A DNA stretch of 64,000 bases from Bowmanella sp. JS7-9 (GTDB lineage Bacteria > Pseudomonadota > Gammaproteobacteria > Enterobacterales > Alteromonadaceae): NCBI RefSeq assembly GCF_004329715.1, contig NZ_JXSY01000022.1, forward strand, positions 1 through 64,000, given 5' to 3'. The notes beneath the pieces were generated by a model. The model made no database searches. It was not told the DNA's origin and worked only from the letters and a program-made list of their open reading frames with translations. How positions within the stretch are numbered: position 1 is the stretch's first letter; each line of letters starts with the position of its first letter. This document shows positions 4,082 to 64,000 of this stretch, in pieces. A program made the position numbers and the translations under genes.

Positions 4082-4257
4082 ATAGTGTCACCAGAATTAT
4101 TGAGATTAAATTGTTGAGTGTACTGAAAAAATCAGTGATCTAAACAGCTGGTCAGCTAAAGGTAGACGGGGAAATGCAAAGAGGGAAATGGTGCCCTCTG
4201 TGCGTGTTATCCGGCATCTGGCCTGACCACATTCAGAGGGCTGCAGAGTCTAACAGA

Positions 4258-4278
4258 ATGTGCCTAAAAAAGGCACAT
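4258..4278 (-). terminator. Hairpin downstream of the antiporter gene
   Basis: An 8-bp perfect stem (ATGTGCCT / AGGCACAT) with a 5-base A (minus strand T) loop lies 33 bp beyond the antiporter stop codon. The U-tract after it is poor, so termination is plausible but may be incomplete. Confidence 0.45.
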
Positions 4279-4311
4279 AAAGTTGTCGCATTTTGTACGA
4301 TATTGGCTGTA

Positions 4312-5712
4312 TTAACCGATAGTTAACAAGCCGGCCAGCAAATACGCCAGTAACGTCAGGCTGCCGGCAAATAGCGCATAAGGAATTTGCGTTTGTACGT
4401 GCTCCAGTAAATCACAGCCGGAGGCAAGCGAACTTACTGCGGTGGTATCGGAAATAGGTGAGCAGTGATCGCCAAATACACCGCCGCCGAGAATCGCCGC
4501 CAGCACTAATTCTGGTGGTAAGCCCAGATTAATCACCAAAGGCATACCGATGGGGATCAAAATGGCAAATGTGCCCCAGCTGGTACCGGTGGTAAAACTA
4601 ATCAAGCCACCGGCCAAAAACAGAATAGCGGGGATACTGAACAGCGGCAGGTTGTCCGCCACCAGACCGGAAATAAATACACCGGTGCCCAGTAACTTCA
4701 GGCTGCTACCCAATGCCAGCGATAACAACACGATGCATACCAGTGGCAATAATTCACTCATGCCATCGAAACCGATCTTCACCAGATCTTTGTGTTGGTA
4801 ACGCCCGGAAAACAGCATCATAAAGTAAGCCAGTAAGCAGGCCAGCGCCGTCGCGTACAGCACTGATTTTGAGCCGCTGCCCTGGGTCAGTTCACCGTTG
4901 CCGGTCCACAGCATAAAACCAATCATACCAATGACCATGGTGGCCAGCGGCAGCAACATAAAGCGTGCTTTGCCGTGTTCATGAGTCTGCAACTCTTCAC
5001 TATGGTGCATGGTTAATGCCTCGGCATCGGCTTTAGCCATGGGGCCGAAGGTCTTGTTGCTGAATATGGTAAACAGCACGATGGCCAGGGTGAACAGGGC
5101 GTAGAAGTTAAGGGGAATCGTACCGATTAGCACCGACACGGACGTATCCGGCAATTCGTAATTATCCAGCAAACCAAGCACATAAGCGCCCCAGCCATTG
5201 AGCAGGATCAGAATACAAATTGGCGCACTGGTGGAGTCGATAATGTAGGCCAGGCGCGCACGGGACAGCTTGAACTTATCAAACAGGCCACGGGAGACGA
5301 TGCCCGCAGTCAGCACGCTGAGGTTCGACTCGATAAACACCACTACGCCGGTAATAAACGCCATCAGGCTGGCGCGCTTGCCGTTGCTGGCCACATTAGC
5401 GTTGACCAGTTTGTTGACCAGTGCCGTGACACCGCCGCTGTGACGCATATAAGCCAACAGGGCACCAACCAACAGTGAGAAAATAAGAATCCGGGTGTTA
5501 CCGGCTGAGGAGAACACTTCGACGATACGTTCCAATGTACCAATAAAACCACCAAACAGTGCATTACCCTCTGTTTGTGGGGTGAACATCAACAGTAACT
5601 CTGAGCTAAACAACGCGATCAACAACGCGCCGATAACTTCTTTTCGCCAGAACACCACGATAATGGCCAACAAGGGAGGGATAATCGATAACCAGTCAGA
5701 CACAGCGCACAT
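4312..5712 (-). CDS. NhaC-family Na+/H+ antiporter
   Basis: A 466-residue polytopic membrane protein with about 11-12 hydrophobic segments. The conserved stretches SLLVGALLAYMRHSGG, FIESNLSVLTAG, IDSTSAPICILILLNGWGAY and, near the C-terminus, FTTGTSWGTFAILIPIGMPL and GGGVFGDHCSPISDTTAVSSLASGCDL are those of the NhaC superfamily. Members exchange cytoplasmic Na+ for H+, or exchange organic substrates, so the exact substrate is open. The start MCAVSDWLSIIPPLLAI puts the first membrane helix where it belongs. The gene is transcribed towards the TonB receptor but separated by 230 bp and a hairpin, so it is probably its own unit. Na+ export would fit a saline habitat. Confidence 0.88.
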   Translation of the reverse strand: MCAVSDWLSIIPPLLAIIVVFWRKEVIGALLIALFSSELLLMFTPQTEGNALFGGFIGTLERIVEVFSSAGNTRILIFSLLVGALLAYMRHSGGVTALVNKLVNANVASNGKRASLMAFITGVVVFIESNLSVLTAGIVSRGLFDKFKLSRARLAYIIDSTSAPICILILLNGWGAYVLGLLDNYELPDTSVSVLIGTIPLNFYALFTLAIVLFTIFSNKTFGPMAKADAEALTMHHSEELQTHEHGKARFMLLPLATMVIGMIGFMLWTGNGELTQGSGSKSVLYATALACLLAYFMMLFSGRYQHKDLVKIGFDGMSELLPLVCIVLLSLALGSSLKLLGTGVFISGLVADNLPLFSIPAILFLAGGLISFTTGTSWGTFAILIPIGMPLVINLGLPPELVLAAILGGGVFGDHCSPISDTTAVSSLASGCDLLEHVQTQIPYALFAGSLTLLAYLLAGLLTIG

Positions 5713-52161: not shown

Positions 52162-53106
52162 ATGCAGATTCATTTAGCCAACCCCCGTGGATTTTGTGCC
52201 GGTGTTGACCGAGCGATCACCATCGTCGAGCGGGCGCTGGAAATGTTTAATCCACCCATTTATGTGCGCCATGAAGTGGTACACAACAAATTCGTGGTTG
52301 AAGGGCTCCGTGCCCGTGGCGCAGTGTTTGTTGATGAACTGCATGAAGTGCCGGATGACAATATCGTAATTTTCTCTGCCCACGGCGTATCACAGGCGGT
52401 CAGACAGGAAGCAGAGCGACGCGGCCTGAAAGTGTTTGATGCCACCTGTCCGCTGGTAACTAAAGTGCATATGGAAGTGACCCGCGCCAGCAAAAAAGGT
52501 GTGGAGTGCATTCTGATCGGCCATGCTGGTCACCCGGAAGTAGAAGGCACCATGGGCCAATACAGTAATCCGCAAGGCGGGATTTATCTGGTTGAGTCAG
52601 TGGACGATGTAGCAAATTTAACGGTTAAAAATCCGCAAAAGCTGTATTTCTGTAGTCAGACAACCTTGTCTGTAGATGACACGGCGGATGTGATTGATGC
52701 ACTACAGGCGCGTTTCACTGCGATTGAAGGGCCGCGTAAAGATGATATCTGTTATGCCACGCAGAACCGTCAGGATGCGGTGCGGGAACTGGCAGACAGG
52801 GTTGATTTACTCTTGGTGGTTGGTGCGCAAAATAGCTCTAATTCCAATCGCTTACGTGAACTGGCCGAAAAAATGGGCACCCGTGCGCATCTGATTAATG
52901 ATGCCGATTGTATCGAATCGGCCTGGTTTGATGGCGTGACCAATGTGGGCGTCACCGCCGGCGCGTCTGCACCGGAGGTCCTGGTGCAGGGCGTCATTGC
53001 GCGTTTACGTGAACTAGGCGCCACCATGGTTACCGAAGTTCAGGGCCGTGAGGAAAATATCGAATTTGCCGTACCGAAAGAGCTACAGGTTAGGCAAGTC
53101 AGTTAA
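52162..53106 (+). CDS. ispH: 4-hydroxy-3-methylbut-2-enyl diphosphate reductase
   Basis: A 314-residue 4Fe-4S enzyme, last step of the MEP isoprenoid pathway. The cluster cysteines are in [24 protein letters not shown] and NSSNSNR-preceding blocks such as [11 protein letters not shown] is the near one; [10 protein letters not shown] and [17 protein letters not shown] carry the catalytic histidines. Length and blocks match E. coli IspH (316). With ispD and ispF near 40 kb, three MEP genes lie in the window. It ends 5 bp from the convergent pilE-like gene. Confidence 0.97.
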
Positions 53107-53111
53107 TCTCA

Positions 53112-53483
53112 TTACCAACATGCTGCCGGGGATTTTGTCATAGATTGATCCAGTGACAATACCTGGCAGGCTGCTTCATCACTGGTCTGTGAACCTCTTG
53201 CCGTCGCGGTCAGGCTATAGGTGGTGGCAGATTGTGCAGCTACCGCATAGGTATAAAAATCACTGACAGGCACGCCCAGCTCAGCAGTGGTGGCATAGGC
53301 ATTATTTTCCAGTCTGAATTGTTCCTGAGCTAGCTGCAGACGTAGTAGTTGTTGTTTGGCATCATCGCGCCTGGCGACAATTACGCGCTCGTTAAAGGTT
53401 GGTACCGCAATCACCACAATAATGCCGAGGATGGCTAACGCCACCATTATTTCAATCAAAGTAAACCCGCTAATACGTTTCAT
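53112..53483 (-). CDS. pilE: Type IV pilin, PilE-like
   Basis: A 123-residue prepilin with a six-residue leader and the class III signal (MKRISG/FTLIEIMVALAILGIIVVIAVPTF; Glu at +5). The globular part has RRDDAKQQLLRLQLAQEQFRLENNAYAT, typical of PilE minor pilins, and a C-terminal disulfide candidate between the cysteines of EAACQVL and PAACW. It is on the minus strand, alone, convergent with ispH and divergent from fimT; in Pseudomonas and relatives pilE closes the plus-strand operon instead. The prepilin peptidase PilD is not in the window. Confidence 0.9.
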   Translation of the reverse strand: MKRISGFTLIEIMVALAILGIIVVIAVPTFNERVIVARRDDAKQQLLRLQLAQEQFRLENNAYATTAELGVPVSDFYTYAVAAQSATTYSLTATARGSQTSDEAACQVLSLDQSMTKSPAACW

Positions 53484-53569
53484 TCTGTGCCGATACCTAT
53501 ATGCTGAAGGAATTGTTTATATACTAGTGCTTAGGTAAAAATAAAAGCGAACGTTTTTAGGTATAGCTA
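53484..53569. promoter_or_regulatory. Divergent pilE / fimT promoter region
   Basis: An AT-rich 86-bp gap. On the plus strand TATACT (53520-53525) is a plausible -10 for the fimT operon, without a convincing -35. Three related elements occur: ATACCTA (53493-53499), TTAGGTA (53531-53537 by eye) and TTAGGTATAG (53557-53566); the last lies 3 bp before the fimT ATG and may double as its ribosome binding site. Its exact reverse complement is found upstream of pilV. Confidence 0.4.
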
Positions 53570-54094
53570 ATGGCAACCAGGTACATACAACAAGGTTTCA
53601 CCCTGATTGAGCTACTGGTGACTGTCGCGGTGATGGCGATCCTGGTCACTATGGGCGCACCTGCGATTCTGGATGCATTAAAGTCAAATACCGTGAAAGG
53701 CGCCGCAGATGGCAGTTATTACGCGTTGCAATACGCGCGCAGCGTGGCGATTTCGAAAGGGGTGGATGCCAACATTGATTTCCAGGATGGGGCAAATTGG
53801 TGTGTCGGGATAAGTGATGCCGGCGTATGTGATTGTTCCGTTGCTGCCAGCTGCACGGTAGATGGAGTTGAGCAACGGGTATTAGCTGCCGATTATCGTA
53901 ATGTCACTATGCAGAATGTCACCTTCGTGGATCAGCGTAGTGTCATTGATAGCCGCAGAGGACTGGCCATCGGCAACGCCGGTCAACTGGAATTTACCGA
54001 CGGCACCAATACATTGCGCCTGGTGTTGAGCAATCTGGGCCGACCGCGCATATGTGTGGCCGCTGGCACAGTGACCAGTTATGAGGATTGCTGA
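53570..54094 (+). CDS. fimT: Minor pseudopilin FimT/FimU (GspH-like)
   Basis: A 174-residue prepilin. The signal is YIQQG/FTLIELLVTVAVMAILVTMGAP with Glu5, then a GspH-type domain (SYYALQYARSVAISKG and the closing LSNLGRPRICVAAG). Four cysteines cluster mid-protein (NWCVGISDAGVCDCSVAASC) and two sit near the C-terminus, suggesting several disulfides. It would be part of the initiation complex at the pilus tip. It is followed with no gap by a PilW-like gene (TGA then ATG). Confidence 0.9.
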   Translation: MATRYIQQGFTLIELLVTVAVMAILVTMGAPAILDALKSNTVKGAADGSYYALQYARSVAISKGVDANIDFQDGANWCVGISDAGVCDCSVAASCTVDGVEQRVLAADYRNVTMQNVTFVDQRSVIDSRRGLAIGNAGQLEFTDGTNTLRLVLSNLGRPRICVAAGTVTSYEDC

Positions 54095-54709
54095 ATGAAT
54101 AAGCAACGCGGGGCCACATTGATTGAAATGATGATTGCGATGTTGCTGGGCATCACTGCATTGTCAGTGTTGTCCTCGGTTATCGGCATGGGTGTCGGAT
54201 CAAATGGCCGCATGCTGGCGCAAACCCGACTCAAAGAAGAACTCTCCTCGATAATGGCGCTGATTGTGCGTGATGTGCGCCGTGCAGGCTACTTCGCCAA
54301 CACGAATCTGATGGTGGCCGATCCCACCAATAATCCTAACCCGTTTGCCAACTCCATTGTAGTGAGTGAATTCGCCGGTGAAGCGGCCAATAGCTGCTTG
54401 CTGTATAGCTATGACGGAAATGGCAATGGCGTGATTGATGCTGCACCGAGCGAAGCCTACGGTTTTCGTCTTCGGGAAAACAGTCTGGAAATGCGTCAGG
54501 GCGGTTTGACCTGCACTGAGGCAGGGTGGCAGGACCTTACCGATGATGATGTGGTGAGTGTAACCGGCCTGACATTTAACGTGGTGCAGACGGTGGCCAA
54601 TAACGTCAATAGTTACGAAGTCACGGTAACATTGCAGGGTACATTGGCCGATCTACCTAATGTCTCCCGTACATACGCAGAGACTTTCCTGGTGCGCGCT
54701 TATGATTAA
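54095..54709 (+). CDS. PilW-like minor pilin (set A)
   Basis: A 204-residue prepilin-like protein. The class III signal is QRG/ATLIEMMIAMLLGITALSVLSSV, with Ala rather than Phe at +1 and Glu at +5. LKEELSSIMALIVRDVRRAGYFA is the hallmark of PilW/GspJ-type pilins, followed by a mostly beta domain with YSYDGNGNGVIDAAP, which looks like a Ca2+-binding loop. It starts directly after the fimT stop and overlaps the next gene by 8 bp. A second, longer PilW is encoded at 58617. Confidence 0.85.
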   Translation: MNKQRGATLIEMMIAMLLGITALSVLSSVIGMGVGSNGRMLAQTRLKEELSSIMALIVRDVRRAGYFANTNLMVADPTNNPNPFANSIVVSEFAGEAANSCLLYSYDGNGNGVIDAAPSEAYGFRLRENSLEMRQGGLTCTEAGWQDLTDDDVVSVTGLTFNVVQTVANNVNSYEVTVTLQGTLADLPNVSRTYAETFLVRAYD

Positions 54710-55820
54710 TGCTCAATTAGCCAAACAGCGCGGTGCTGCCATCTTGATTTCTGTGGTGCTGTTGCTGGTGCTGGTGTTACTGGTCAGCCTGTACACCGGC
54801 AAAATCAAATCCCTTGAACACAAAGTGTTACTCAACGAACAGAATTATCGTTTGGCGTTTGCAGCGTCCGAAGCGGGCCTGATGCACGGTTTTGGCATGT
54901 TGGATGCTGATCCGGATTGGCTCGGTGGCCCGGATGCACAGGTGCTGGGTAACAACGCCGGATTTACCGTACAGGGTGTGCGTCAGTTGGTGGTGCGTGA
55001 TTCCGGCGAACTGACGTTGCTAACCCTGACATCTACCGGCACATCTCCAGATGGTCTGGCGACGGTAAATATGAGCGAGCAGGCCATTCAGTATTCGTTA
55101 TTGGCTAACGCACCGGATGCACCTTTGATTGTCGCGGGCGGGTTAGCCGTCGGTGGTAATTTCGAAGTGACAGCGAACCCCAATGGTGGTGGGACGGGTG
55201 TGCCGCTGTCCATCTGGACTGATCAGGCCGTTGACCTAAACAATGGTTCAGGCACTACCTGTGGATTGTATGAATACAATCAGGGCAATTGCTCGAGCGA
55301 ACCCTATTCAGAAGCTGGGTTTAAAGGCCTGGACATTGTTGATAATGACCCGGGGTTTCCCGATGACCTGATGGAATATCTGTTTAATGTGCCGGATGAC
55401 AACTGGGCAGATTTACGTGCCGATGCCACAGAGATTCTGGCCGATTGTACGACCCTCAGCGCGGCATCGGTTGGCCTTATCTGGGTTGATGGCGATTGTA
55501 CGATCAATGCCGGTACAGTCATTGGGACACCAACGTCGCCAGTGATTTTGATTGTCACCGACGGTGACATCAAGATGAATGGTGGTGCGTTGTTACATGG
55601 GATCTTGTTCTCATTCCGCAAACCCGGTGTGGTGGCGGATTTTGAAATCGATATGGCGGGTGGTGCACATGTTTTGGGTGTGGTGGCGTCCAATCACCCT
55701 GTTGGTCATGCAAATGGTACGTATAACGCTGTCTATGATGCCAGCGTACTGACGGCTATTGAACAGCATGATGCCTTTTTACGCGTAGCCAGAGTTCCTG
55801 GCTCGTGGCGGGACTTTTAG
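54702..55820 (+). CDS. Long PilX-like pilus assembly protein (set A)
   Basis: A 372-residue protein from the ATG at 54702, overlapping the PilW-like gene by 8 bp. The N-terminus AKQRG/AAILISVVLLLVLVLLVSLYTGK is a PilX-type signal/helix lacking Glu at +5, as is usual for PilX/GspK; FAASEAGLMHGFGML follows. The large C-terminal part ends with repeats resembling a beta-helix (IWVDGDCTINAGTVIGTP, VTDGDIKMNGGALLHGILFS, DMAGGAHVLGVVASN). At 372 residues it is about twice the PilX of the second set. GspK-like proteins cap pseudopilus tips, so a tip position is likely. Confidence 0.75.
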   Translation: MINAQLAKQRGAAILISVVLLLVLVLLVSLYTGKIKSLEHKVLLNEQNYRLAFAASEAGLMHGFGMLDADPDWLGGPDAQVLGNNAGFTVQGVRQLVVRDSGELTLLTLTSTGTSPDGLATVNMSEQAIQYSLLANAPDAPLIVAGGLAVGGNFEVTANPNGGGTGVPLSIWTDQAVDLNNGSGTTCGLYEYNQGNCSSEPYSEAGFKGLDIVDNDPGFPDDLMEYLFNVPDDNWADLRADATEILADCTTLSAASVGLIWVDGDCTINAGTVIGTPTSPVILIVTDGDIKMNGGALLHGILFSFRKPGVVADFEIDMAGGAHVLGVVASNHPVGHANGTYNAVYDASVLTAIEQHDAFLRVARVPGSWRDF

Positions 55821-55828
55821 GAGGCCAC

Positions 55829-57889
55829 ATGAAGAAGCAAGCTGGTTTTACCTTAATCGAAATGCTAATTGCAGCACTGGTTATCCTGATTGGGGTGACG
55901 GGGTATGTAACACTGCAATCGAATTTTATGCGCTCGGATGCGCAGCTTAATCTACGCGCGGTGGCATTAAAGCTGGCGCAGGAAAAAATGGATGATTTGC
56001 GCACCTTTACGCAATTGCAGACCACGGCTGGGGTGTTTGATTACAACGATGTGCAGAATAATGCCGGTGGTGCGCTGGTCTCAGGCAATATTGATGTCGC
56101 GGTTAATGCCGATGCCGATATGAATCACACGTTCATCCGTAACTGGACCGTGACCAACCAGTACTATGTGGATACCAATGCAGATGGATTGGCGGATACC
56201 TGGTTAAATGAAGGAGATCCCGGATTACCAGCGAACCTGCCATCTTGGCCGAGCAAGAAAGTCGTTACAGTACAAATCAGCTGGCAGGACTACCAGGGCG
56301 ATGCCAAACAAGTGCAGATTGACGGCACTATTGCGCCGGTTGTGCTGACTGCCAGCCATCAGGCGCTGCAGGAGTCAGACAATAGCAGAAAAGGCCCAAC
56401 GGTTGATTATACACCTGGGGTCGCTCCGGATGTTATTTCTTATGATCTGGGCGATGGTAAAAAGGTTGAGACTTCTAAGCCAGTGCCTGAGGTGAATAAA
56501 ACCGGTGATAACATTCAGGTCCAGTTTGAAACAGTCAAATACATCGAGTTGCCTGATGACGTGACGAAGTTGGAGCAGGAAGACTTTCTTACTGTAAATT
56601 GTAAATGCGCATTGGCGGGACAGAATCAGGGCTATACGCCATCTCAAACGACATTGGTAGACGGACAGTTGGTGGTACAGCGAGGTCAATTAGTAACGAA
56701 AACGACTGGTGTACCCGATGGCAATGGCCAGCCTGAACTCTGCACTGCCTGTTGTCGGGACCATCACGATACGGCGGCGATGGTAAGTGATGAAAATTAT
56801 TACCGTAAGGAATGGGGTAATCCACATCGCCATTATAATTATGACGGCATAACCTACACCGCTGCGACATTAATTGGTGACAAATATATTGAAGCGTGCA
56901 GATTTAAACGAGTGGATGGATTGTTTGAACTGTATGCGGATTGGTATTTGGTCGATGTGATTACATTTAAACAGGATTATTTGTTTAATGAGGCCAACTT
57001 TACTGCCTATCGGGCATACACCGAAGGATTAGTTGAGAGCCGGATTGCGGGTTCCACTGCGCCGACTCGTCCTGCCAATCGAGATTTCCAGGTGCCGCCC
57101 GGCGCTTACCAAATGATTGCCCGGGGTATATATGTGGATCGCATCACAGATGAGCATCGCGCTGCGATAATCGAGAAAATCAATGCAGGTGATGCGACCT
57201 GGAAAGCGATCACACCATTTTATGATGTCAATTTAACCCTTTTGTCAGGCTGGGATACGGGGGATGCGGTTGTCGCAACCATTACTGAAGAACCGATTGA
57301 GACAATTGTTGACCCTGACAATGATTTATACGGCACTTATAGCAGGGGGCGCCTTGAAGCGCTGGCTGATGGCACGACCAATGTATCGGTAAAAGCCTAT
57401 CCCTTTAGCTCGGGCATTACGGGTACCAATCCTATTTCTCCTTTCGAAGTTTACCTTGGACGGTTGGATGACACGGTTAATGTAGAAGTTAATGGTAAAG
57501 CCACGACTGAAAAGTACTTTGGCCTGATTGGTGACATTAAATGTGTAACTGTCATTAGTGGCGTCAGTAGTGCCTGTGAGACCAATAATGACAAAAAAGC
57601 CGATTATGTGGATTTAACCGCATTGGCCCTAACTGCCGACCCTGCTCACTTTAGTTGTAGTGTGAGTGTGCCGAAAGGAAAAGCGACCCCATTCTATAGT
57701 TGCGACGATGTGTCTGAGAACTGGAATGGCACGATTAGTTTAGCATTTACCGCACCAGGCTATTCGGTGACGCTGAAAGTGGAATATCCGGATGGGTCTC
57801 AGGTCGAAGCCAATGCGTTCTCGTTGCTTAGTAAATTAGAAGCCACATCCAATCGCGACTACAACATCATCATAGAGCTGACGCCATAA
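55829..57889 (+). CDS. Very large PilV-like pilin with a unique C-terminal region (set A)
   Basis: A 686-residue prepilin-like protein. TTAGGAGG (55817-55824) fixes the ATG at 55829. The N-terminus MKKQAG/FTLIEMLIAALVILIGVTGYVTLQ and the following helix (RAVALKLAQEKMDDLRTF) are those of PilV/GspI pilins. After about residue 190 nothing is recognisable: a CxC pair (Cys258, Cys260), the dense cluster CTACCRDHH (Cys305, Cys308, Cys309, His312, His313), more single cysteines (from ~345 and 575 on), and a C-terminal beta-rich part (~580-686). Ordinary PilV pilins have about 150-220 residues. A tip adhesin or PilY1 substitute is my inference. No domain family is named from sequence. Confidence 0.75.
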   Translation: MKKQAGFTLIEMLIAALVILIGVTGYVTLQSNFMRSDAQLNLRAVALKLAQEKMDDLRTFTQLQTTAGVFDYNDVQNNAGGALVSGNIDVAVNADADMNHTFIRNWTVTNQYYVDTNADGLADTWLNEGDPGLPANLPSWPSKKVVTVQISWQDYQGDAKQVQIDGTIAPVVLTASHQALQESDNSRKGPTVDYTPGVAPDVISYDLGDGKKVETSKPVPEVNKTGDNIQVQFETVKYIELPDDVTKLEQEDFLTVNCKCALAGQNQGYTPSQTTLVDGQLVVQRGQLVTKTTGVPDGNGQPELCTACCRDHHDTAAMVSDENYYRKEWGNPHRHYNYDGITYTAATLIGDKYIEACRFKRVDGLFELYADWYLVDVITFKQDYLFNEANFTAYRAYTEGLVESRIAGSTAPTRPANRDFQVPPGAYQMIARGIYVDRITDEHRAAIIEKINAGDATWKAITPFYDVNLTLLSGWDTGDAVVATITEEPIETIVDPDNDLYGTYSRGRLEALADGTTNVSVKAYPFSSGITGTNPISPFEVYLGRLDDTVNVEVNGKATTEKYFGLIGDIKCVTVISGVSSACETNNDKKADYVDLTALALTADPAHFSCSVSVPKGKATPFYSCDDVSENWNGTISLAFTAPGYSVTLKVEYPDGSQVEANAFSLLSKLEATSNRDYNIIIELTP

Positions 57890-57981
57890 GGCGTCTGCTC
57901 TATAACCTATAACGCAATCCTATACCTAATTATCCATTACTTCTGATAGGCTAAGCACTCATCATCTTTGAGTGCAGCCGC
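57890..57981 (+). promoter_or_regulatory. Upstream region of the second minor-pilin operon
   Basis: A 92-bp AT-rich gap. CTATACCTAA at 57920-57929 is the exact reverse complement of the element before fimT. A 7-bp stem (GCACTCA / TGAGTGC, 57955-57961 and 57969-57975) ends 6 bp before the pilV ATG and may influence translation. I see no strong -35/-10 pair. Confidence 0.35.
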
Positions 57982-58620
57982 ATGGAATCAGGGACATTCA
58001 GGGCGCAGAGCTCACCCCATATTACACAGCAGGGTTTAGGACTTATTGAGGTCCTGATTACCTTGTTCATTTTGTCTATTGGACTGCTCGGCGTTGCCTC
58101 GCTGCAACTGGTGGGCTCCTTTACCAATTCCGCCGCTCTGAACCGTTCAGATGCAACCATGCAGGTGCAACAACTAAGTGAAAGGTTGCAGGCCAGTGCT
58201 CTGCAATCACTCAGTGCACCGGGGCGTATTGTTGATAATCAGTATTTCGCGGCCGACAACTGGAATTTTGCCGGACTGGCCTGTGATGAAAGTAACCCAT
58301 GGCAATGCCATTGCACTGCGCGACCTGTTGCCATCCCGGATTGTGATGCTAATCAGTGCAGCACTGCAGAAATGGCCCGATATGATGGTTGGCAGGTCAG
58401 TTGTGCCGCTGTGAAATCCAATCCATCGGCACAATTAGCCGTGACCTGTGCAGACATTAATGCACTGGATGGGCAAAGCTGCAGCGCAGGCTCCACGTTG
58501 CAAATAATTCTGCGTTGGCCGACGACCAGTTGGCAGGGGGCAAACCGGATTGATAACCCTGATTGTGCCATAGATGGCAGCGAACATGCTGACTGCGTTG
58601 TGGTGAGGTTGATCCTATGA
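57982..58620 (+). CDS. pilV: Minor pilin PilV (set B)
   Basis: A 212-residue prepilin with a long leader (about 18 residues) before QQG/LGLIEVLITLFILSIGLLGVASLQ, Leu at +1 and Glu at +5. LSERLQASALQSL and a cysteine-rich middle (ACDESNPWQCHCTARPVAIPDCDANQCS) follow, ending in the domain with STLQIILRWPT. It matches PilV of gammaproteobacteria. A leader of this length is uncommon and no ribosome binding site is visible before the ATG, but I see no better start. The pilW gene overlaps the stop by ATGA. Confidence 0.88.
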   Translation: MESGTFRAQSSPHITQQGLGLIEVLITLFILSIGLLGVASLQLVGSFTNSAALNRSDATMQVQQLSERLQASALQSLSAPGRIVDNQYFAADNWNFAGLACDESNPWQCHCTARPVAIPDCDANQCSTAEMARYDGWQVSCAAVKSNPSAQLAVTCADINALDGQSCSAGSTLQIILRWPTTSWQGANRIDNPDCAIDGSEHADCVVVRLIL

Positions 58621-59474
58621 GCTATCAACAACGCGGTTTTACCTTGGTTGAATTGATGGTCAGTTTGTTGCTGGGGGTAATTATCAGTGGCGCCATCATA
58701 CAGGTTCTGGTCAGTAATCAGGTCACATCCAGATTAAATCAGGCCATGGCATCGGCGCAGGAAGGCGGGCGCTTTATCGTGCAGCGCTTACGCGATGATG
58801 TGCTGCGTGCAGGGCTTTATGATCGTAACAGTCCGCTGTTAAACCGAGATGTGGATACGCTGGCAGAAGAGAGTTTTATTCATCAGCGCACTATTAATTT
58901 GCCCGGTGATTTTATTCAGCGTCCGCTACTGGGTGCCAGTCAGGGGGCGGATGGCGCAGCGGATACGCTGGTTATTAGCATGGCCGGTTCTTCTGATTGC
59001 CGCAGCCTGCAGCATGGGTATAACGGTACAGAACGCTTTCATGTGGTGAATGAGTATTTTTTGGAAGACGGGCAGCTTAAATGTCGCGGCTTTGACGGCA
59101 GGGCGCTGCGTGGCTTGAAAGCAGCACAAGGGCATGACGGCAATGCTGCCTACACGCTGCTCGATGATGTGGTGGATTTTCAGGTGCAATACGGTATTGC
59201 GTTTACTAATGCCGCCGAGCATGAGTTGGGTCGTCCAGCGCAATATGTCACTGCGGAACAATTGGCGGCTTTGCGAGGGCAAGGGGCGAGTGCTGTGACT
59301 ATCCGTTTTGCGGTGTTAGTTAAAGGTGACGGGCAAGTTAACTTGCCTCAGGCTGCGCAATTTAAGTTACTGAATGAAGCGTTGCAGAATGCGCCGGACA
59401 ATGGTTATTACCGTGATTTCGGCGCAACCGTGGTATTGCGTAACAGTAAAAACTGGTTTGGAGCGAGTCAATGA
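58617..59474 (+). CDS. pilW: Minor pilin PilW (set B)
   Basis: A 285-residue prepilin. The signal is YQQRG/FTLVELMVSLLLGVIISGAIIQVLV with Glu5, then ASAQEGGRFIVQRLRDDVLRAGLYDR, the PilW hallmark, and a long beta domain. Compared with the PilW-like protein at 54095 the signal is canonical (Phe at +1) and the protein 81 residues longer. It is coupled by ATGA overlaps to pilV before and pilX after. Confidence 0.9.
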   Translation: MSYQQRGFTLVELMVSLLLGVIISGAIIQVLVSNQVTSRLNQAMASAQEGGRFIVQRLRDDVLRAGLYDRNSPLLNRDVDTLAEESFIHQRTINLPGDFIQRPLLGASQGADGAADTLVISMAGSSDCRSLQHGYNGTERFHVVNEYFLEDGQLKCRGFDGRALRGLKAAQGHDGNAAYTLLDDVVDFQVQYGIAFTNAAEHELGRPAQYVTAEQLAALRGQGASAVTIRFAVLVKGDGQVNLPQAAQFKLLNEALQNAPDNGYYRDFGATVVLRNSKNWFGASQ

Positions 59475-60040
59475 AACAATCAGGTTTGGTTTTGGTATTC
59501 GCTTTGCTAATTCTGCTGACCATGACGTTGCTTGGTATCGCCGCCGTATCATCCAGTTTGTTGCAGTCCAAAATGGCCAGCGCAGGAGAGTCAAAAACGG
59601 TTGCTTTTGAAGCGGCTGAAGCGGCGATCAATGCGGTTGTCTTCGAGTCTGAGGATCCTTTTTTGTTGGCCGATGATGCGTTGACCGATCCCCTCACCGA
59701 AGCCAGGCAGGATGTGGCCATTGATTTAGCAAACCAGCAGTTAAGTTGTTTCAATGATAACAACTGGACAGCCAGACAAATCACCGCCGATGGATTAAAC
59801 CGGGGGCAGCGTCATGTAGCCGCCGCCAATTTTTCCGATCGTCCAGCGGTACGGGCCTGGTCGAAGAGTGCGTTTATTGGTGAGCGCGCCTGTAAAGGAT
59901 CCAGCAATGTCATAGGCGGCAGTAACATCAGTTGTCACCAGTTCATTATTCGCGGTTGTGGCCAAAGCGCAGCAGCGCCTTATGCAGTTGCCAATAGTCT
60001 GAATGTGTCGGTGTTTGCGCCTGCGTCAATGAGTAATTAG
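59471..60040 (+). CDS. pilX: Minor pilin PilX (set B)
   Basis: A 189-residue protein with the PilX pattern: a short leader, then SGLVLVFALLILLTMTLLGIAAVSSSLLQSKMASAGESKTVAFEAAEAAINAVVFES. Four cysteines are present (LSCFND, ERACKGS, ISCHQFIIRGCGQS), likely disulfide-bonded. The signal lacks Glu at +5, normal for PilX. It is coupled to pilW by ATGA and lies 7 bp before pilY1. Confidence 0.85.
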   Translation: MKQSGLVLVFALLILLTMTLLGIAAVSSSLLQSKMASAGESKTVAFEAAEAAINAVVFESEDPFLLADDALTDPLTEARQDVAIDLANQQLSCFNDNNWTARQITADGLNRGQRHVAAANFSDRPAVRAWSKSAFIGERACKGSSNVIGGSNISCHQFIIRGCGQSAAAPYAVANSLNVSVFAPASMSN

Positions 60041-60047
60041 GAGAGGC

Positions 60048-63000
60048 ATGATGAACAAGTTATTCCATGCTGTTATTTCGATGGGGCTGACGGCAGCCAT
60101 CAGTTTTTGCGCACAGGCCGATGATATCGAAATTTATCTGGGGACAGGAAGCGAGACGACGACGTTCAACCCGAATGTGCTGTTTATTATGGATACGTCG
60201 GGCAGTATGACTGGCAAGGATGGCACCGAAGAGTCTCGTTTATTACGTGTGCAAAATGCGCTAAAAGCCGCCTTGCGGTCTGCGACCAATATCAATGCGG
60301 GTTTAATGCGTTTCTCCGATTATGGCGGGCCAATCTTGTACCCGGTGCGTCCCATCGACTCACCCGTTGTACCGGAAATTATTACGTCGTTAAGTCACAG
60401 CAGTGACGATGCATTTGAAGTGTTGGGGTCCGTTAACACCACATCCACCCGAATTAAGCTGGTGGAAGGGCTGGCCAGTTTACGTACTGGTTTGCGCTTT
60501 GATGATCTGAACATTCCACGCGGCGCAACGATTACTTCTGCAAAAATCCGTTTTAGCTCAGATGGTTATAATGCAGTAGCGGCATCTATGAGCTTGCATG
60601 GTATTGCCAGCGGTGATGTGGCGCAGTTTAGCAATTCGTCGTCGCTAAGTTCGCTTGCCCTGACGACTGCGCAAGTGGACTGGAATACTGACAATGATTG
60701 GCCGGTTACCTCTGAACGCGTGGTGAGTGAAGATATTTCACCGATTATTCAGGAAGTGGTGAATCGGGCGGATTGGTGCGGCGGCAATGCACTTGGCATT
60801 GTGGTGGACGGTAGCAGTGCTTCAACAGGTGCCAATCGATATATCAAATCTTATGACGAGGGCACAGGGTTATCGCCTGAATTAGTAGTGACCTATGATC
60901 AGGCATCGGCCACAGGGTGTGTTGCGGGTGAAATGTTTTATCAGGTTGATAACAATAATAACAACGCTGAAGAGCAGCCCGATGGTTATCTCAACACCGG
61001 TAGTGAGTTAACCTTTAATGCCAGCAGTAATAACTATGTAGGCATGCGCTTCGCTAATCTTACGATTCCGCCAGGCGCTGTAGTTACCGAGGCGTATCTT
61101 ATTTTTACCGCCTATCAAAACCGCTACGGTAGTGCGGATATGCAAATCAGGATGATTAATGAAGCCAACCCTGATCGTTTCAGACGACGCGATCGCTACG
61201 TCTTGCGTGATGCGGCGAAAACCAGTGGCATCGCATGGACGGGTTTGCCTAACTGGTACAAAGACGAAACATACCAGACTCCCAATCTGGCAGCACAGGT
61301 TCAGCAAATTGTAAACCGTGCGGACTGGCAGTCTGGTAATGCCGTCATGTTCGTCTTATCTGACTTTACCGGCAATCGGGGAGCATACTCCTACAATGGC
61401 AAGCCATCTGGCGCGCCACAACTGGTAGTGCGCTTTCAAGGGGCGGCAATTCCTGAAACCGTGGCGACAGTGCGTGACCATCTGCTCAATAAAGTCGATG
61501 AGTTATCGGCCAATGGTTACACGCCAATCGTCGATACCCTGCTTGAGGCAGTCAGTTATTACGGTGGTCTGGATGTATTGTATGGATTGGAACGCGGCGC
61601 ATCTGGCGTCAGCAGCAGTGTGCGCCGAGCGACACGGGTTAGCCATCGAGCCAGTTATGTAGGGGGCGATCCTATTCGCGCCGTAGGCTGTACTGATGAC
61701 GATTTAAATAATTCCGCGTGTGAAACGGAATACATTCCGGACGGAGCGACCTACATATCACCTGTCACTGATTTACAATGTCAGACCAATAACCACATTG
61801 TGCTGCTGTCTGACGGCGAGGCCAACAATAATCACTCTGCGGATGAGATAGCGACATTACTGGGACGAAGCTGCACGTCCGCAAGCTCTGGAGAACTGTG
61901 CGGACTGGATTTAATCAAAAATGTCAGCAAAGCCAGTGAGTCGGTGATTGGCCCGCGTATTCTCACTCACACCATCGGCTTTGCCGCCAATGCCACCGCG
62001 AATAACTTTCTGAATCAGTTAGCATTGCAGGGCGGTGGTAGTTTTTATACTGCCAGCGATAGTGCGCAATTGCTCACGGCGTTTGAGTCGATCCTGCGCA
62101 GTGTTAAAGACGTGAATGCGACGTTCGTCTCGCCTGGGGTGGCGGTAAACCAGTTAAACCGTCTGACCCACAGGGATGAGCTGTATTTTGCATTGTTTAA
62201 GCCTTCTGAAGGCACCGCCTGGCCAGGAAACCTGAAAAAATACAAGATTGTCGGAAACTCAATTGTTGATAGTAATAGTTTAAGTGCGGTGGACGATGCT
62301 ACCGGCTATTTCAAGGAAACCGCACACAGCTACTGGTCGGCCTCTGCGGATGGTGCAGATGTCAGGGCGGGGGGCGCGGCCAGCAATCTGACCTTAAGCC
62401 GTAACATGTATATGTTTGACGCGCCTGGCGTTATTGTCACGGCGGCAAATCGAATCCATGAGAGTAACACCGCGATCACGACCACAGATTTAGCCATCGA
62501 CGGCCAACCCGCCCCGGCAGATTTGCGCAATGTGTTACTCAAGTGGTTACGAGGCGTGGATGTGCAGGATGCGGACGATGATGGGGATAACACGGACATT
62601 CGACTGCAAATGGGTGACCCCATACACTCGCAACCCGTCATCGTTAATTATTCGGATACCGACAGCGCGATTCTGGTGGCAACCAATCAGGGATTTTTGC
62701 ATTCCTTCGACCCGGAGACCGGCAGCGAAAACTTTGCCGTCGCACCGAAAAAGCTATTAAGTAATGTGCATGCATTTTATTTAAATAACTCGTCCTTTAA
62801 TCATATTTATGGCCTGGATGGCGATATGGTATTGCGTAAAACATCGGACCGTATTTACCTGTATGTGGGCATGCGAAGGGGAGGACGGGACTACTACGCG
62901 TTCGATATCACCAATAAAACCAGTCCTCAGCTCAAGTTTAAAATTGAAGGTGGTCAAGGCGCGTTCAGTAAACTGGGGCAGACCTGGTCGAAACCTGTAC

Positions 63001-64000
63001 CGGCACGTGTCAATCTGGCCGGCAGCGTGCGTGATGTGCTGATATTTGCGGGCGGGTATGATGAACAGCAGGACTATCGCTTAGTCAGAGGGGTAGATAG
63101 CATGGGTAACGCTGTGTTCATGGTCGATGCCAATACCGGCGAACTACTCTGGTCAGCCAGTAATAGTGATGCCGACCTGCTGCTACCCGACATGAATTAC
63201 AGTATTCCGGCTCGGGTGGCCGTTATCGACCGCGATGATGATGGCCTAGCGGATCATTTATACGTAGCAGACACCGGCGGGCAGCTTTTCCGTCTGGATA
63301 TTACTCAGGGTAATACTGCCGGTGATTTGGTGCGTGGTGGGCTGTTGGCGCAGATAGCAGGAGACGATAATGAGGTGGAAAACCGTCGTTTCTTCTATGC
63401 ACCTGATGTATCTGAAGTGAGTATGAACAGCGAGCATTATTATGCCGTTGCCATTGGGTCGGGCTACCGCGCCCATCCACTGAACACAGATATCAAAGAC
63501 TACATGCTGATGATTAAAGACACTGGGGTCTTTACACAGGATGAGTCAGGTAACTGGTCGTTACCCGCCGCCCCCGTAACATTGACTGACTTATACGACG
63601 CGACATTACACACGTTGACCTCGTCTGACAGCGATGCGCGTGAAATCGCCTCCTCGCTGTTAGCTAGCAAGCAAGGGTGGCTGATTAGTCTGGGGACGGG
63701 CGGTGAAAAAGTGTTGGCATCTCCGCTTATTCTCAATTATCGCGTGTTGTTTACTACCTATTTACCTGCCGCGATCAGTGAAAGTGAGTGTGCACCGCCA
63801 AGTGGCAACAGCCGTGCTTATCTGGTGGATCTGATTGATGCCAATGCGATTACAGATTTAAATCGGGATAACTCGCTCAATCATAGTGACAGATACACGG
63901 ATCTGGCTCAAAGTGGTATCGCGCCGGAAACCAAGATCCTGATAGAGGATGCTTTGCATCCCGTGGTGTGCTTAGGGACAGAATGTGGTTCCGCAGTCAT
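60048..64000 (+). CDS. pilY1: Type IV pilus tip protein PilY1, cut by the window end
   Basis: Open from the ATG at 60048 (AGGAG just upstream; a second ATG follows) to the last base, 1317 codons with no stop. After a signal peptide (ending near CAQA/DD) comes a vWA domain: MIDAS start FIMDTSGSM (~residue 46), later part NHIVLLSDGEANNN and HTIGFAANAT. Residues ~131-284 and ~308-464 between them hold two similar domains. The C-terminal propeller has QMGDPIHSQPVIVN, LVATNQGFLHSFDPETG and the Ca2+ loop DRDDDGLADHLYVADTGGQLFRLD; a further acidic loop is DADDDGDNTD. PilY1 caps the pilus and acts in adhesion, surface sensing and retraction control. The missing part is probably short, but this cannot be seen. 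Confidence 0.93.
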   Translation, partial: MMNKLFHAVISMGLTAAISFCAQADDIEIYLGTGSETTTFNPNVLFIMDTSGSMTGKDGTEESRLLRVQNALKAALRSATNINAGLMRFSDYGGPILYPVRPIDSPVVPEIITSLSHSSDDAFEVLGSVNTTSTRIKLVEGLASLRTGLRFDDLNIPRGATITSAKIRFSSDGYNAVAASMSLHGIASGDVAQFSNSSSLSSLALTTAQVDWNTDNDWPVTSERVVSEDISPIIQEVVNRADWCGGNALGIVVDGSSASTGANRYIKSYDEGTGLSPELVVTYDQASATGCVAGEMFYQVDNNNNNAEEQPDGYLNTGSELTFNASSNNYVGMRFANLTIPPGAVVTEAYLIFTAYQNRYGSADMQIRMINEANPDRFRRRDRYVLRDAAKTSGIAWTGLPNWYKDETYQTPNLAAQVQQIVNRADWQSGNAVMFVLSDFTGNRGAYSYNGKPSGAPQLVVRFQGAAIPETVATVRDHLLNKVDELSANGYTPIVDTLLEAVSYYGGLDVLYGLERGASGVSSSVRRATRVSHRASYVGGDPIRAVGCTDDDLNNSACETEYIPDGATYISPVTDLQCQTNNHIVLLSDGEANNNHSADEIATLLGRSCTSASSGELCGLDLIKNVSKASESVIGPRILTHTIGFAANATANNFLNQLALQGGGSFYTASDSAQLLTAFESILRSVKDVNATFVSPGVAVNQLNRLTHRDELYFALFKPSEGTAWPGNLKKYKIVGNSIVDSNSLSAVDDATGYFKETAHSYWSASADGADVRAGGAASNLTLSRNMYMFDAPGVIVTAANRIHESNTAITTTDLAIDGQPAPADLRNVLLKWLRGVDVQDADDDGDNTDIRLQMGDPIHSQPVIVNYSDTDSAILVATNQGFLHSFDPETGSENFAVAPKKLLSNVHAFYLNNSSFNHIYGLDGDMVLRKTSDRIYLYVGMRRGGRDYYAFDITNKTSPQLKFKIEGGQGAFSKLGQTWSKPVPARVNLAGSVRDVLIFAGGYDEQQDYRLVRGVDSMGNAVFMVDANTGELLWSASNSDADLLLPDMNYSIPARVAVIDRDDDGLADHLYVADTGGQLFRLDITQGNTAGDLVRGGLLAQIAGDDNEVENRRFFYAPDVSEVSMNSEHYYAVAIGSGYRAHPLNTDIKDYMLMIKDTGVFTQDESGNWSLPAAPVTLTDLYDATLHTLTSSDSDAREIASSLLASKQGWLISLGTGGEKVLASPLILNYRVLFTTYLPAAISESECAPPSGNSRAYLVDLIDANAITDLNRDNSLNHSDRYTDLAQSGIAPETKILIEDALHPVVCLGTECGSAV
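60438..60900 (+). repeat. pilY1: PilY1 inserted domain, copy 1
   Basis: A ~154-residue domain inside the vWA region: LRTGLRFDDLNIPRGATITSAKIRFSSDG, then VVNRADWCGGNALGIVVDG and LVVTYDQ at the end. It resembles DNRLRE-type jelly-roll domains known from secreted proteins. It is diverged from copy 2 but has the same order of motifs. Confidence 0.65.
60972..61440 (+). repeat. pilY1: PilY1 inserted domain, copy 2
   Basis: A ~157-residue domain with the same layout as copy 1: VGMRFANLTIPPGAVVTEAYLIFTA, IVNRADWQSGNAVMFVLSD, LVVRFQG. Shared keys are RF..L.IP.GA, VNRADW..GNA and LVV at the end. After it the vWA domain resumes (VRDHLLNKVDELSANGYTP). Confidence 0.65.

What the first reader, a model, noticed from the sequence alone, without database searches (positions are those of the whole stretch)
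53570..60040. Two consecutive minor-pilin operons, the first with no PilY1
The sequence shows two runs of prepilin genes on the same strand. Set A (53570-57889) is FimT, PilW-like, long PilX-like, giant PilV-like. Set B (57982 onward) is PilV, PilW, PilX, PilY1. Each has a PilV-, PilW- and PilX-class member, but they differ much in length and in signal residues (set A PilW and PilX have Ala at +1). Canonical gammaproteobacteria have one such set with PilY1. I infer that set A primes a different pilus tip, in which the 686-residue pilin takes the place of PilY1, so one fibre machine could carry two alternative heads.
Basis: partly seen in the sequence, partly recalled or inferred. Interest (0 to 1): 0.72.

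Follow-up and report, generated by a model that had tools for sequence, protein, structure and literature searches.

The report
Second pilus tip set lacking PilY1
Next to an ordinary set of genes for the tip of a bacterial pilus (a retractable surface fibre) lies a second, very different set that lacks the usual tip protein and instead carries two oversized tip subunits, so related bacteria may be able to fit different heads to one fibre machine.

Summary
The two prepilin sets are real and intact. Set B (57982 to past the window end) is an ordinary PilV-W-X-PilY1-PilE operon. Two members are enlarged. The 372-aa PilX is predicted to carry a beta-solenoid inserted before the last pilin strand; its best-ranked solved match is ComZ, the DNA-binding competence pilin of Thermus. 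The 686-aa PilV is predicted as pilin, disordered linker and ~490-residue ectodomain. Set A occurs in 15 relatives in which two searches found no PilY1, and elsewhere beside set B in either order, so it looks like a self-sufficient tip set that moves as a unit. The own genome has one canonical PilQ, so both sets probably serve one type IVa machine. Alternative heads are already proposed for Myxococcus, and operons without pilY1 are known in Haemophilus and E. coli. New here is the ComZ-like cap plus giant PilV in gammaproteobacteria, beside or in place of a PilY1 set. DNA capture is likely, not shown.

The parts
53112..53483 (-). PilE1: PilE/ComP-like prepilin, divergent from set A
   Evidence: ComP_DUS 63.9 bits over a cut-off of 27.3; divergent beside the set in 15 of 16 named loci
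53570..54094 (+). A1: FimT-class minor pilin, C-terminal GRPR motif
   Evidence: GspH 30.6 bits over a cut-off of 21; best NCBIfam match PRK10506 (PpdA, name recalled) 50.2 bits, below its cut-off of 158; GRPR
54095..54709 (+). A2: PilW-class minor pilin
   Evidence: N_methyl; best NCBIfam match PRK10557 (PpdB, name recalled) 87.2 bits, below its cut-off of 120; lineage apart from B2
54702..55820 (+). A3: PilX-class cap pilin without Glu at +5, with a predicted ComZ-like beta-solenoid (model residues about 142-344) inserted before the last pilin strand
   Evidence: PilX_N 25.5 bits, at its cut-off; model pLDDT 87.5; ComZ ranked first by Foldseek, E 1.4e-3, and first in the PDB profile search, not significant at E 0.093
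55829..57889 (+). A4: giant modular PilV: pilin module 1-170, disordered linker 172-191, ectodomain about 200-686 with six invariant Cys and a possible Ig-like part
   Evidence: PilV model 43.9 bits, below 52.2; model pLDDT 84.3; natural length variants
57982..58620 (+). B1: PilV of set B
   Evidence: PilV model 42.9 bits, below 52.2
58617..59474 (+). B2: PilW of set B
   Evidence: Pfam PilW 47.6 bits over a cut-off of 26
59471..60040 (+). B3: PilX of set B, cap without Glu at +5
   Evidence: PilX_N 41.4 bits over a cut-off of 25.5
60048..64000 (+). B4: PilY1, 1360 aa, continues to contig position 64130
   Evidence: vWA_2 27.0 bits at its cut-off, PilY1 propeller 21.8 bits below its cut-off of 28.1; full frame

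Best explanation
Set A is a complete, self-sufficient tip (priming) complex for the cell's single type IVa pilus machine, an alternative to the PilY1 tip made by set B. It is of the V. cholerae / E. coli / Haemophilus kind (FimT-PilW-PilX-PilV, no pilY1 in the operon), elaborated by two grafted modules. The E5-less PilX (A3) caps the fibre and presents a ComZ-like beta-solenoid; PilV (A4) next to it presents a large flexible ectodomain. Shown here: intact genes, gene order, co-travel as a module, occurrence where no PilY1 was found. Predicted: the architectures of A3 and A4. Inferred: that set A primes the PilQ machine, that A and B tips are alternatives and not mixed, and that the job is capture of DNA (through the A1 GRPR motif and the A3 solenoid), with the A4 ectodomain adding contact with a surface or a glycan.
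For: Gene order FimT-W-X-V as in VC0858-0861 (order read from the locus tags in PMC12040237 passages). A1 and A2 score best to PRK10506 and PRK10557. A2 and B2 lie in separate lineages: 34 of 36 rows labelled A2 form one side of a branch (90/100); the other two are long PilWs labelled by weak best hits. A3 model: Foldseek ranks ComZ 6qvi first, E 1.4e-3, prob 0.96; second-look alignment to ice-binding proteins Z up to 14.0 and to ComZ Z 10.5; the ComZ paper reports the same ice-binding likeness and the same insertion point (PMC6561018 passages). A4 model: pilin, linker, ectodomain, and natural variants end at the same borders. A3 lacks E5 in all 28 readable of 30 rows; A4 has it in 40 of 40. 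PilY1 not found in 15 set A genomes by two searches each. One PilQ over the cut-off in each of 10 set A genomes tested. GRx[RK] near the A1 C-terminus in 21 of 30 homologues and in the own copy.
Against: The own FimT of set B also has GRVK, as have 29 of 73 set B type FimT rows a G-R-x-[RK] (G051 counted twice), so the motif does not set A apart. The ComZ match has low TM-scores (0.26 and 0.21), no Foldseek match reached E 0.001, the sequence match is not significant (E 0.093), and the whole-chain ComZ alignment has rmsd 10.1. No competence gene, promoter or expression evidence was obtained. Whether the set-A-only genomes hold another PilVWX set elsewhere was not searched. PF05567 alone barely sees the own PilY1 (E 0.0085), and the own PilY1 barely sees that of G559 (E 2.4e-7), so a PilY1 divergent from both could be missed.
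Confidence: 0.6

Rival explanations
1. Set A is an adhesion head: the A4 ectodomain is the functional substitute for PilY1 and binds surfaces or glycans, and DNA uptake is left to set B with its own FimT.
For: A4 is pilin + flexible linker + large ectodomain, like adhesive modular pilins (PMC8179133 passages); weak Ig-like matches (Z 7.8; Big_2 in 3 of 40 members at E up to 0.05); all 15 genomes without detected PilY1 have an A4 frame of 660 aa or more, while the two pilin-only A4s (G004, G036) are in genomes with PilY1.
Against: A4 is an E5-bearing PilV, not the cap; G010 and G058 have short FimT-first sets at the same locus and no PilY1 match; A4 lacks the last domain in G504, G750 and G758 (525-540 aa), whose PilY1 was not searched but whose seven tested congeners have none; the ectodomain folds are only weakly assigned.
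Confidence: 0.25
2. Set A and set B subunits mix in one tip, or set A pilins are fed into the MSHA or type II machines, so there is no second head.
For: The genome also has MSHA and T2SS clusters, and all their prepilins carry the same class of signal.
Against: MSHA and T2SS each have their own prepilins, ATPase and secretin; each of sets A and B has its own E5-less cap; set A occurs without set B at the locus in G005, G050, G026, G082.
Confidence: 0.1
3. Set A is a decaying relic of a competence operon kept by chance.
For: Patchy presence: 13 of 98 genomes have the A4 ectodomain; A4 is short in G004 and G036; A3 is split in the Oceanisphaera draft.
Against: Frames are intact in the own genome; A3 keeps 66-71% identity in the five nearest relatives aligned; 20 A4 columns are invariant over 40 sequences.
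Confidence: 0.05

Closest known systems
V. cholerae competence minor pilins FimT-PilW-PilX-PilV (VC0858-0861), Haemophilus comNOPQ, E. coli ppdAB-ygdB-ppdC
   Same: Gene order (V. cholerae), minor-pilin classes, no pilY1 in the operon, E5-less PilX cap, A1/A2 nearest to the E. coli family models
   Different: PilX and PilV carry large grafted modules, the operon lies between ispH and a PilY1 set, and a PilE-like gene is divergent
ComZ of Thermus thermophilus (PDB 6qvi)
   Same: Minor pilin with an ice-binding-protein-like beta-solenoid inserted before the last strand of the pilin sheet (predicted here); ComZ is proposed to sit at the tip of a DNA-uptake pilus
   Different: Solenoid here is smaller (about 200 against about 380 residues); no significant sequence match; DNA binding untested; sits with a giant PilV
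Modular pilins (S. sanguinis PilB and PilC; CofB, TcpB)
   Same: Small pilin module, linker, bulky module, probable tip position
   Different: A4 ectodomain is of another, largely unassigned fold and sits on a PilV-class subunit within a four-subunit tip set
Multiple tip sets in one genome (M. xanthus clusters 1-3; Xylella fastidiosa paralogues)
   Same: Two or more minor-pilin sets for one pilus machine, different heads proposed
   Different: In M. xanthus each set has its own PilY1; here one of two sets has none and is of a different lineage

Membership tests
VC0858-0861 / ppdAB-ygdB-ppdC / comNOPQ type minor-pilin operon | order FimT-PilW-PilX-PilV | tested here: met
   against the classes and locus tags named in PMC12040237
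VC0858-0861 / ppdAB-ygdB-ppdC / comNOPQ type minor-pilin operon | no PilY1 in the operon | tested here: met
   A4 is followed by set B here, by nadE or other genes elsewhere
VC0858-0861 / ppdAB-ygdB-ppdC / comNOPQ type minor-pilin operon | subunits match the E. coli family models | tested here: inconclusive
   best matches of A1 and A2, but 50.2 of 158 and 87.2 of 120 bits needed; that PRK10506 and PRK10557 are PpdA and PpdB is recalled
VC0858-0861 / ppdAB-ygdB-ppdC / comNOPQ type minor-pilin operon | competence regulation and need for transformation | not testable with these tools
   upstream DNA was printed but no CRP-S scan or assay was made
ComZ-type tip pilin (A3) | beta-solenoid inserted between the last two strands of a pilin fold | tested here: met
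   on a predicted model only; definition
ComZ-type tip pilin (A3) | sequence homology to ComZ | tested here: inconclusive
   first of 177635 PDB sequences but E 0.093
ComZ-type tip pilin (A3) | binds DNA | not testable with these tools
   needs protein
Modular pilin (A4) | N-terminal pilin module joined by a linker to a separate module | tested here: met
   predicted model; length variants end at the same borders
P. aeruginosa-type set with PilY1 (set B) | pilV-W-X-Y1-E order with a PilY1 | tested here: met
   the PilY1 propeller model is below its cut-off (21.8 of 28.1), but near full-length homologues at E 0 occur in 18 other relatives
Another secretion or MSHA system (set A) | own ATPase and secretin beside the prepilins | tested here: not met
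   in the own genome the ATPases and secretins found lie elsewhere; the relatives' neighbours were compared only with the window's genes

The most novel reading that the evidence does not exclude
One type IVa pilus machine is served by two interchangeable heads of different evolutionary origin: a PilY1 head and a PilY1-free head built from a ComZ-like solenoid cap and a giant PilV. In several lineages the second head has wholly replaced PilY1, so the giant PilV ectodomain and the solenoid are an independent solution to what PilY1 does at the tip.
Probability: 0.3. Interest if true: 0.75.

Novelty: new variant of a known kind. Interest (0 to 1): 0.57.

Why it matters
Whether PilY1 is required to prime a type IVa pilus, and how a tip gains new binding functions, are open questions. 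Here are relatives with set B only, set A only, or both in either order, a natural experiment that makes PilY1 dispensability and head swapping testable by gene removal. It also suggests that ComZ-like solenoid caps, described from Thermus, occur in gammaproteobacteria.

Tried and rejected
Tandem duplication of one set: rejected, since same-class A and B members match only weakly (A1 to set B fimT 43.9 bits, A2 to B2 30.4, A4 to B1 30.8, no A3 to B3 match) and A2/B2 are separate lineages. Own secretion system for set A: rejected for the own genome. Ala at +1 as a special signal: rejected. GRxR as a mark that sets A apart from B: rejected, since B has GRVK. Rfam on the window: no match at the gathering score. 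The promoter and terminator scan of 53050-58100 gave 7 against 7.8 expected and 6 against 4.5 expected, no clear excess. The genome-contig scan used only the prepilin N-terminal pattern, so of its 27 loci just two, Ferrimonas balearica (L160) and Oceanisphaera psychrotolerans (L161), matched along most of A4. The A4 fold search gave no convincing whole-module match: no second-look Z reached 8, and the ectodomain before residue 373 was barely tested, so no fold is claimed for it. Paper searches: among the rows listed I saw no title or abstract start on ComZ-like pilins or a giant PilV in gammaproteobacteria; the lists were capped, only the passages named in this report were read, and subscription journals are mostly not held. 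PMC11124393 passages name pilABCD and tapMNOPQ in Aeromonas; no FimT-W-X-V set appears in the passages seen.

Rows dropped. A4 alignment: 39 of the 48 frames plus the window row; left out were L079 and L047 (G051, 20% identity), L010 and L187 (the own gene), L167, L171, L185, L210 and L213. A3 alignment: 24 rows; partial frames among the 33, L083 (G036) and the G051 row were left out. In the E5 and +1 counts best-hit thresholds of 45 to 100 bits were applied, and G051 is counted twice in the A2 rows. The PilW tree used 78 of 103 rows, with 20 of the divergent B rows drawn at random. ispH neighbourhoods were fetched for 80 of the 97 other genomes; four of the 80 ended at a contig end under 14 kb. 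In one search the profile match to A4 of G026 runs on past a TAG; the frame used for it ends there at 666 aa.

Full report
What is there. One search shows ileS, lspA, fkpB and ispH (names by eye), then a prepilin on the minus strand (53112-53483), then on the plus strand A1 53570-54094, A2 54095-54709, A3 54702-55820 and A4 55829-57889. Each starts directly at, inside or 8 bases after the end of the one before, as in an operon. After 92 bases set B starts (57982). Set B runs pilV, pilW, pilX, pilY1 and, beyond the window, pilE, then a convergent fimT, nadE and glnB. The assignments rest on Pfam and NCBIfam. A1, A2 and A4 stay below the curated cut-offs of their closest NCBIfam equivalogue models, and A3 has no NCBIfam match, so these are class names, not equivalogues.

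The machine. The own genome (47 contigs) has 19 prepilin N-termini over the Pfam cut-off: eight on the window's contig (PilE1, A1, A2, A4, B1, B2, pilE and the convergent fimT; A3 and B3 carry PilX_N instead), four in a type II cluster, five in an MSHA cluster, one pilA and one MshA-like orphan (cluster names by eye and). The type II and MSHA clusters have their own ATPases and secretins. PilQ over its cut-off occurs once, on contig C17, and pilC and pilD lie with pilA on C10. Set A therefore has no machine of its own, and the PilA/PilQ machine is the one left for it. That last step is inference.

Set A in relatives. The A4 ectodomain is found in 13 of 98 genomes (E 2.3e-50 or better, own genome included; the other matches are to the N-terminal part only, G004 among them), in 30 of 394 genomes drawn from the order and in 5 of 369 drawn from the class (own genome in both counts). 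Neighbourhoods of 80 ispH genes plus five other loci show the set moving as a unit: set A alone after ispH (G005, G050, G026, G082); A then B (own, G036, G004); B then A (G014, G053, and with a more divergent B set G096, G072); set A elsewhere in the genome (G011, G016, G057, G073); reversed short forms (G024, G019). A PilE1-like gene is divergent beside the set in 15 of these 16 loci (own not counted), not in G024. G010 and G058 have a short FimT-first set at the same place.

PilY1 was not found in many carriers. With the own PilY1 as query, 4 of the 13 carriers have no match at E 1e-5 (G005, G050, G026, G082). PF05567 on 20 handles hits 5: the own genome (below cut-off) and G559, G716, G468, G604. 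The C-terminal 816 residues of the own PilY1 on 21 handles hit 8 and miss 13: G534, G653, G741, G519, G679, G662, G571, G643, G671, G706, G792, G099, G357. Fifteen carriers are thus negative in two searches: four, eleven. Neither query sees every PilY1: the family model gives the own one only E 0.0085, and the own one gives that of G559 only E 2.4e-7. In G016 set B is present but its PilY1 frame is only 396 aa.

The two sets are old relatives, not duplicates. Within the own genome the best same-class A-to-B match is A1 to the set B fimT at 43.9 bits, apart from PilE1 to pilE at 53.1; A2 to B2 has 30.4 and A4 to B1 30.8. In a tree of 78 PilW rows, 34 of 36 rows labelled A2 form one side of a branch (90/100); the two exceptions (G041, G090) are long PilWs labelled by hits of 30 and 38 bits (the bootstrap had not fully settled).

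A3. The model (24 sequences, mean pLDDT 87.5) has a long helix, a sheet to residue 132, strands from 142 to 344, and a last strand at 360-364. Foldseek ranks ComZ first (E 1.4e-3, prob 0.96, TM-scores 0.26 and 0.21), then ice-binding proteins; no match is below E 0.001. The second look gives ice-binding proteins Z up to 14.0 over 171 residues, ComZ Z 10.5 over 261 residues at rmsd 10.1 (by my reading the two domains lie at a different angle), and pilin or pseudopilin cores at Z 7-9.5. The ComZ paper describes insertion between the penultimate and last strands, and likeness to GspK and to the ice-binding protein FfIBP (passages). By sequence ComZ is first but not significant (E 0.093).

A4. The model (40 sequences, mean pLDDT 84.3) has a pilin module to about residue 170, a stretch under pLDDT 50 at 172-191, and a mostly confident ectodomain. 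[quoted passage not shown] no remnant was seen behind it in three frames. So the module borders of the model are also borders used by evolution. Residues 373-558 resemble Ig-like domains (LigA, Z 7.8, rmsd 1.6 over 91), and Big_2 is seen in 3 of 40 members at E up to 0.05. Both lines are weak. Six Cys (258, 260, 305, 308, 309, 357), His312 and Asp314 are invariant in 40 sequences.

Tip logic. The V. cholerae paper takes absence of Glu5 as the mark of the capping pilin and gives the order PilX, PilV, PilW, FimT from the tip (passages). A3 lacks E5 in all 28 readable of 30 rows, B3 in 19 of 19. E5 is present in A1 28 of 30, A2 28 of 30 (G051 twice), A4 30 of 30, B1 18 of 19, B2 19 of 20. Each set thus has one cap, which favours two alternative tips over one mixed tip. 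The cap would be A3 with the solenoid, and A4 would sit next to it.

Function. DNA capture is favoured by the operon type (comNOPQ is required for uptake in Haemophilus, passages), by ComZ, and by the FimT motif G-[RK]-x-[RK] in A1 (own GRPR; 21 of 30 homologues; motif from passages). Against it: the set B fimT has GRVK, and nothing was measured. An adhesive role of A4 is the main rival.

What is known. M. xanthus has three minor-pilin clusters, each with PilY1, for one machine, and its authors speculate about tips with different properties (passages). Xylella has paralogous sets with mostly opposite mutant phenotypes (passages). Modular pilins are widespread (passages). So alternative heads and grafted modules are known ideas. 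What I did not find in print (searches, listings only) is a PilY1-free set with a ComZ-like cap and a giant PilV in gammaproteobacteria, next to or in place of a PilY1 set.

Limits. Competence genes were not searched. The set-A-only genomes were not searched for further prepilin sets. Both structures are predictions.

Noticed in passing
L061 (own contig C10:268000-287000) and L062 9211-11436 (-) (contig C3): pilA is followed directly by pilC and pilD with no pilB between them, and no ATPase of the genome passes the PilB cut-off. A 741-aa PilB-like ATPase with an N-terminal GAF domain (45.6 bits over 22.4) lies elsewhere. Of 59 same-family genomes, 28 lack a PilB over the cut-off and 23 of these have this ATPase, against 3 of the 31 with PilB (tallied by hand); the genomes are related, so the counts are not independent. 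It may have replaced PilB in this clade.
   Followed up: partly
L084, G016, 3623-4813 (+) counted in ispH orientation: Set B is present but its PilY1 is only 396 aa with an apparent signal peptide, while set A lies elsewhere in that genome with a full-length A4.
   Followed up: partly
L161 (Oceanisphaera psychrotolerans): The A3 homologue reads as two frames of 252 and 121 aa, so it may be broken there or the draft may hold an error.
   Followed up: no
L063 5950-6450 (-): An orphan prepilin (166 aa, MshA-like by eye) on another contig than the MSHA cluster.
   Followed up: no
56600-56900: A4 holds CxC and CxxCC motifs and His312/Asp314 that are invariant in 40 sequences; metal site or disulphides, unknown.
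   Followed up: partly
57880-57895: A perfect inverted repeat (6-base arms, 4-base loop) spans the A4 stop codon without a T run behind it (by eye).
   Followed up: no
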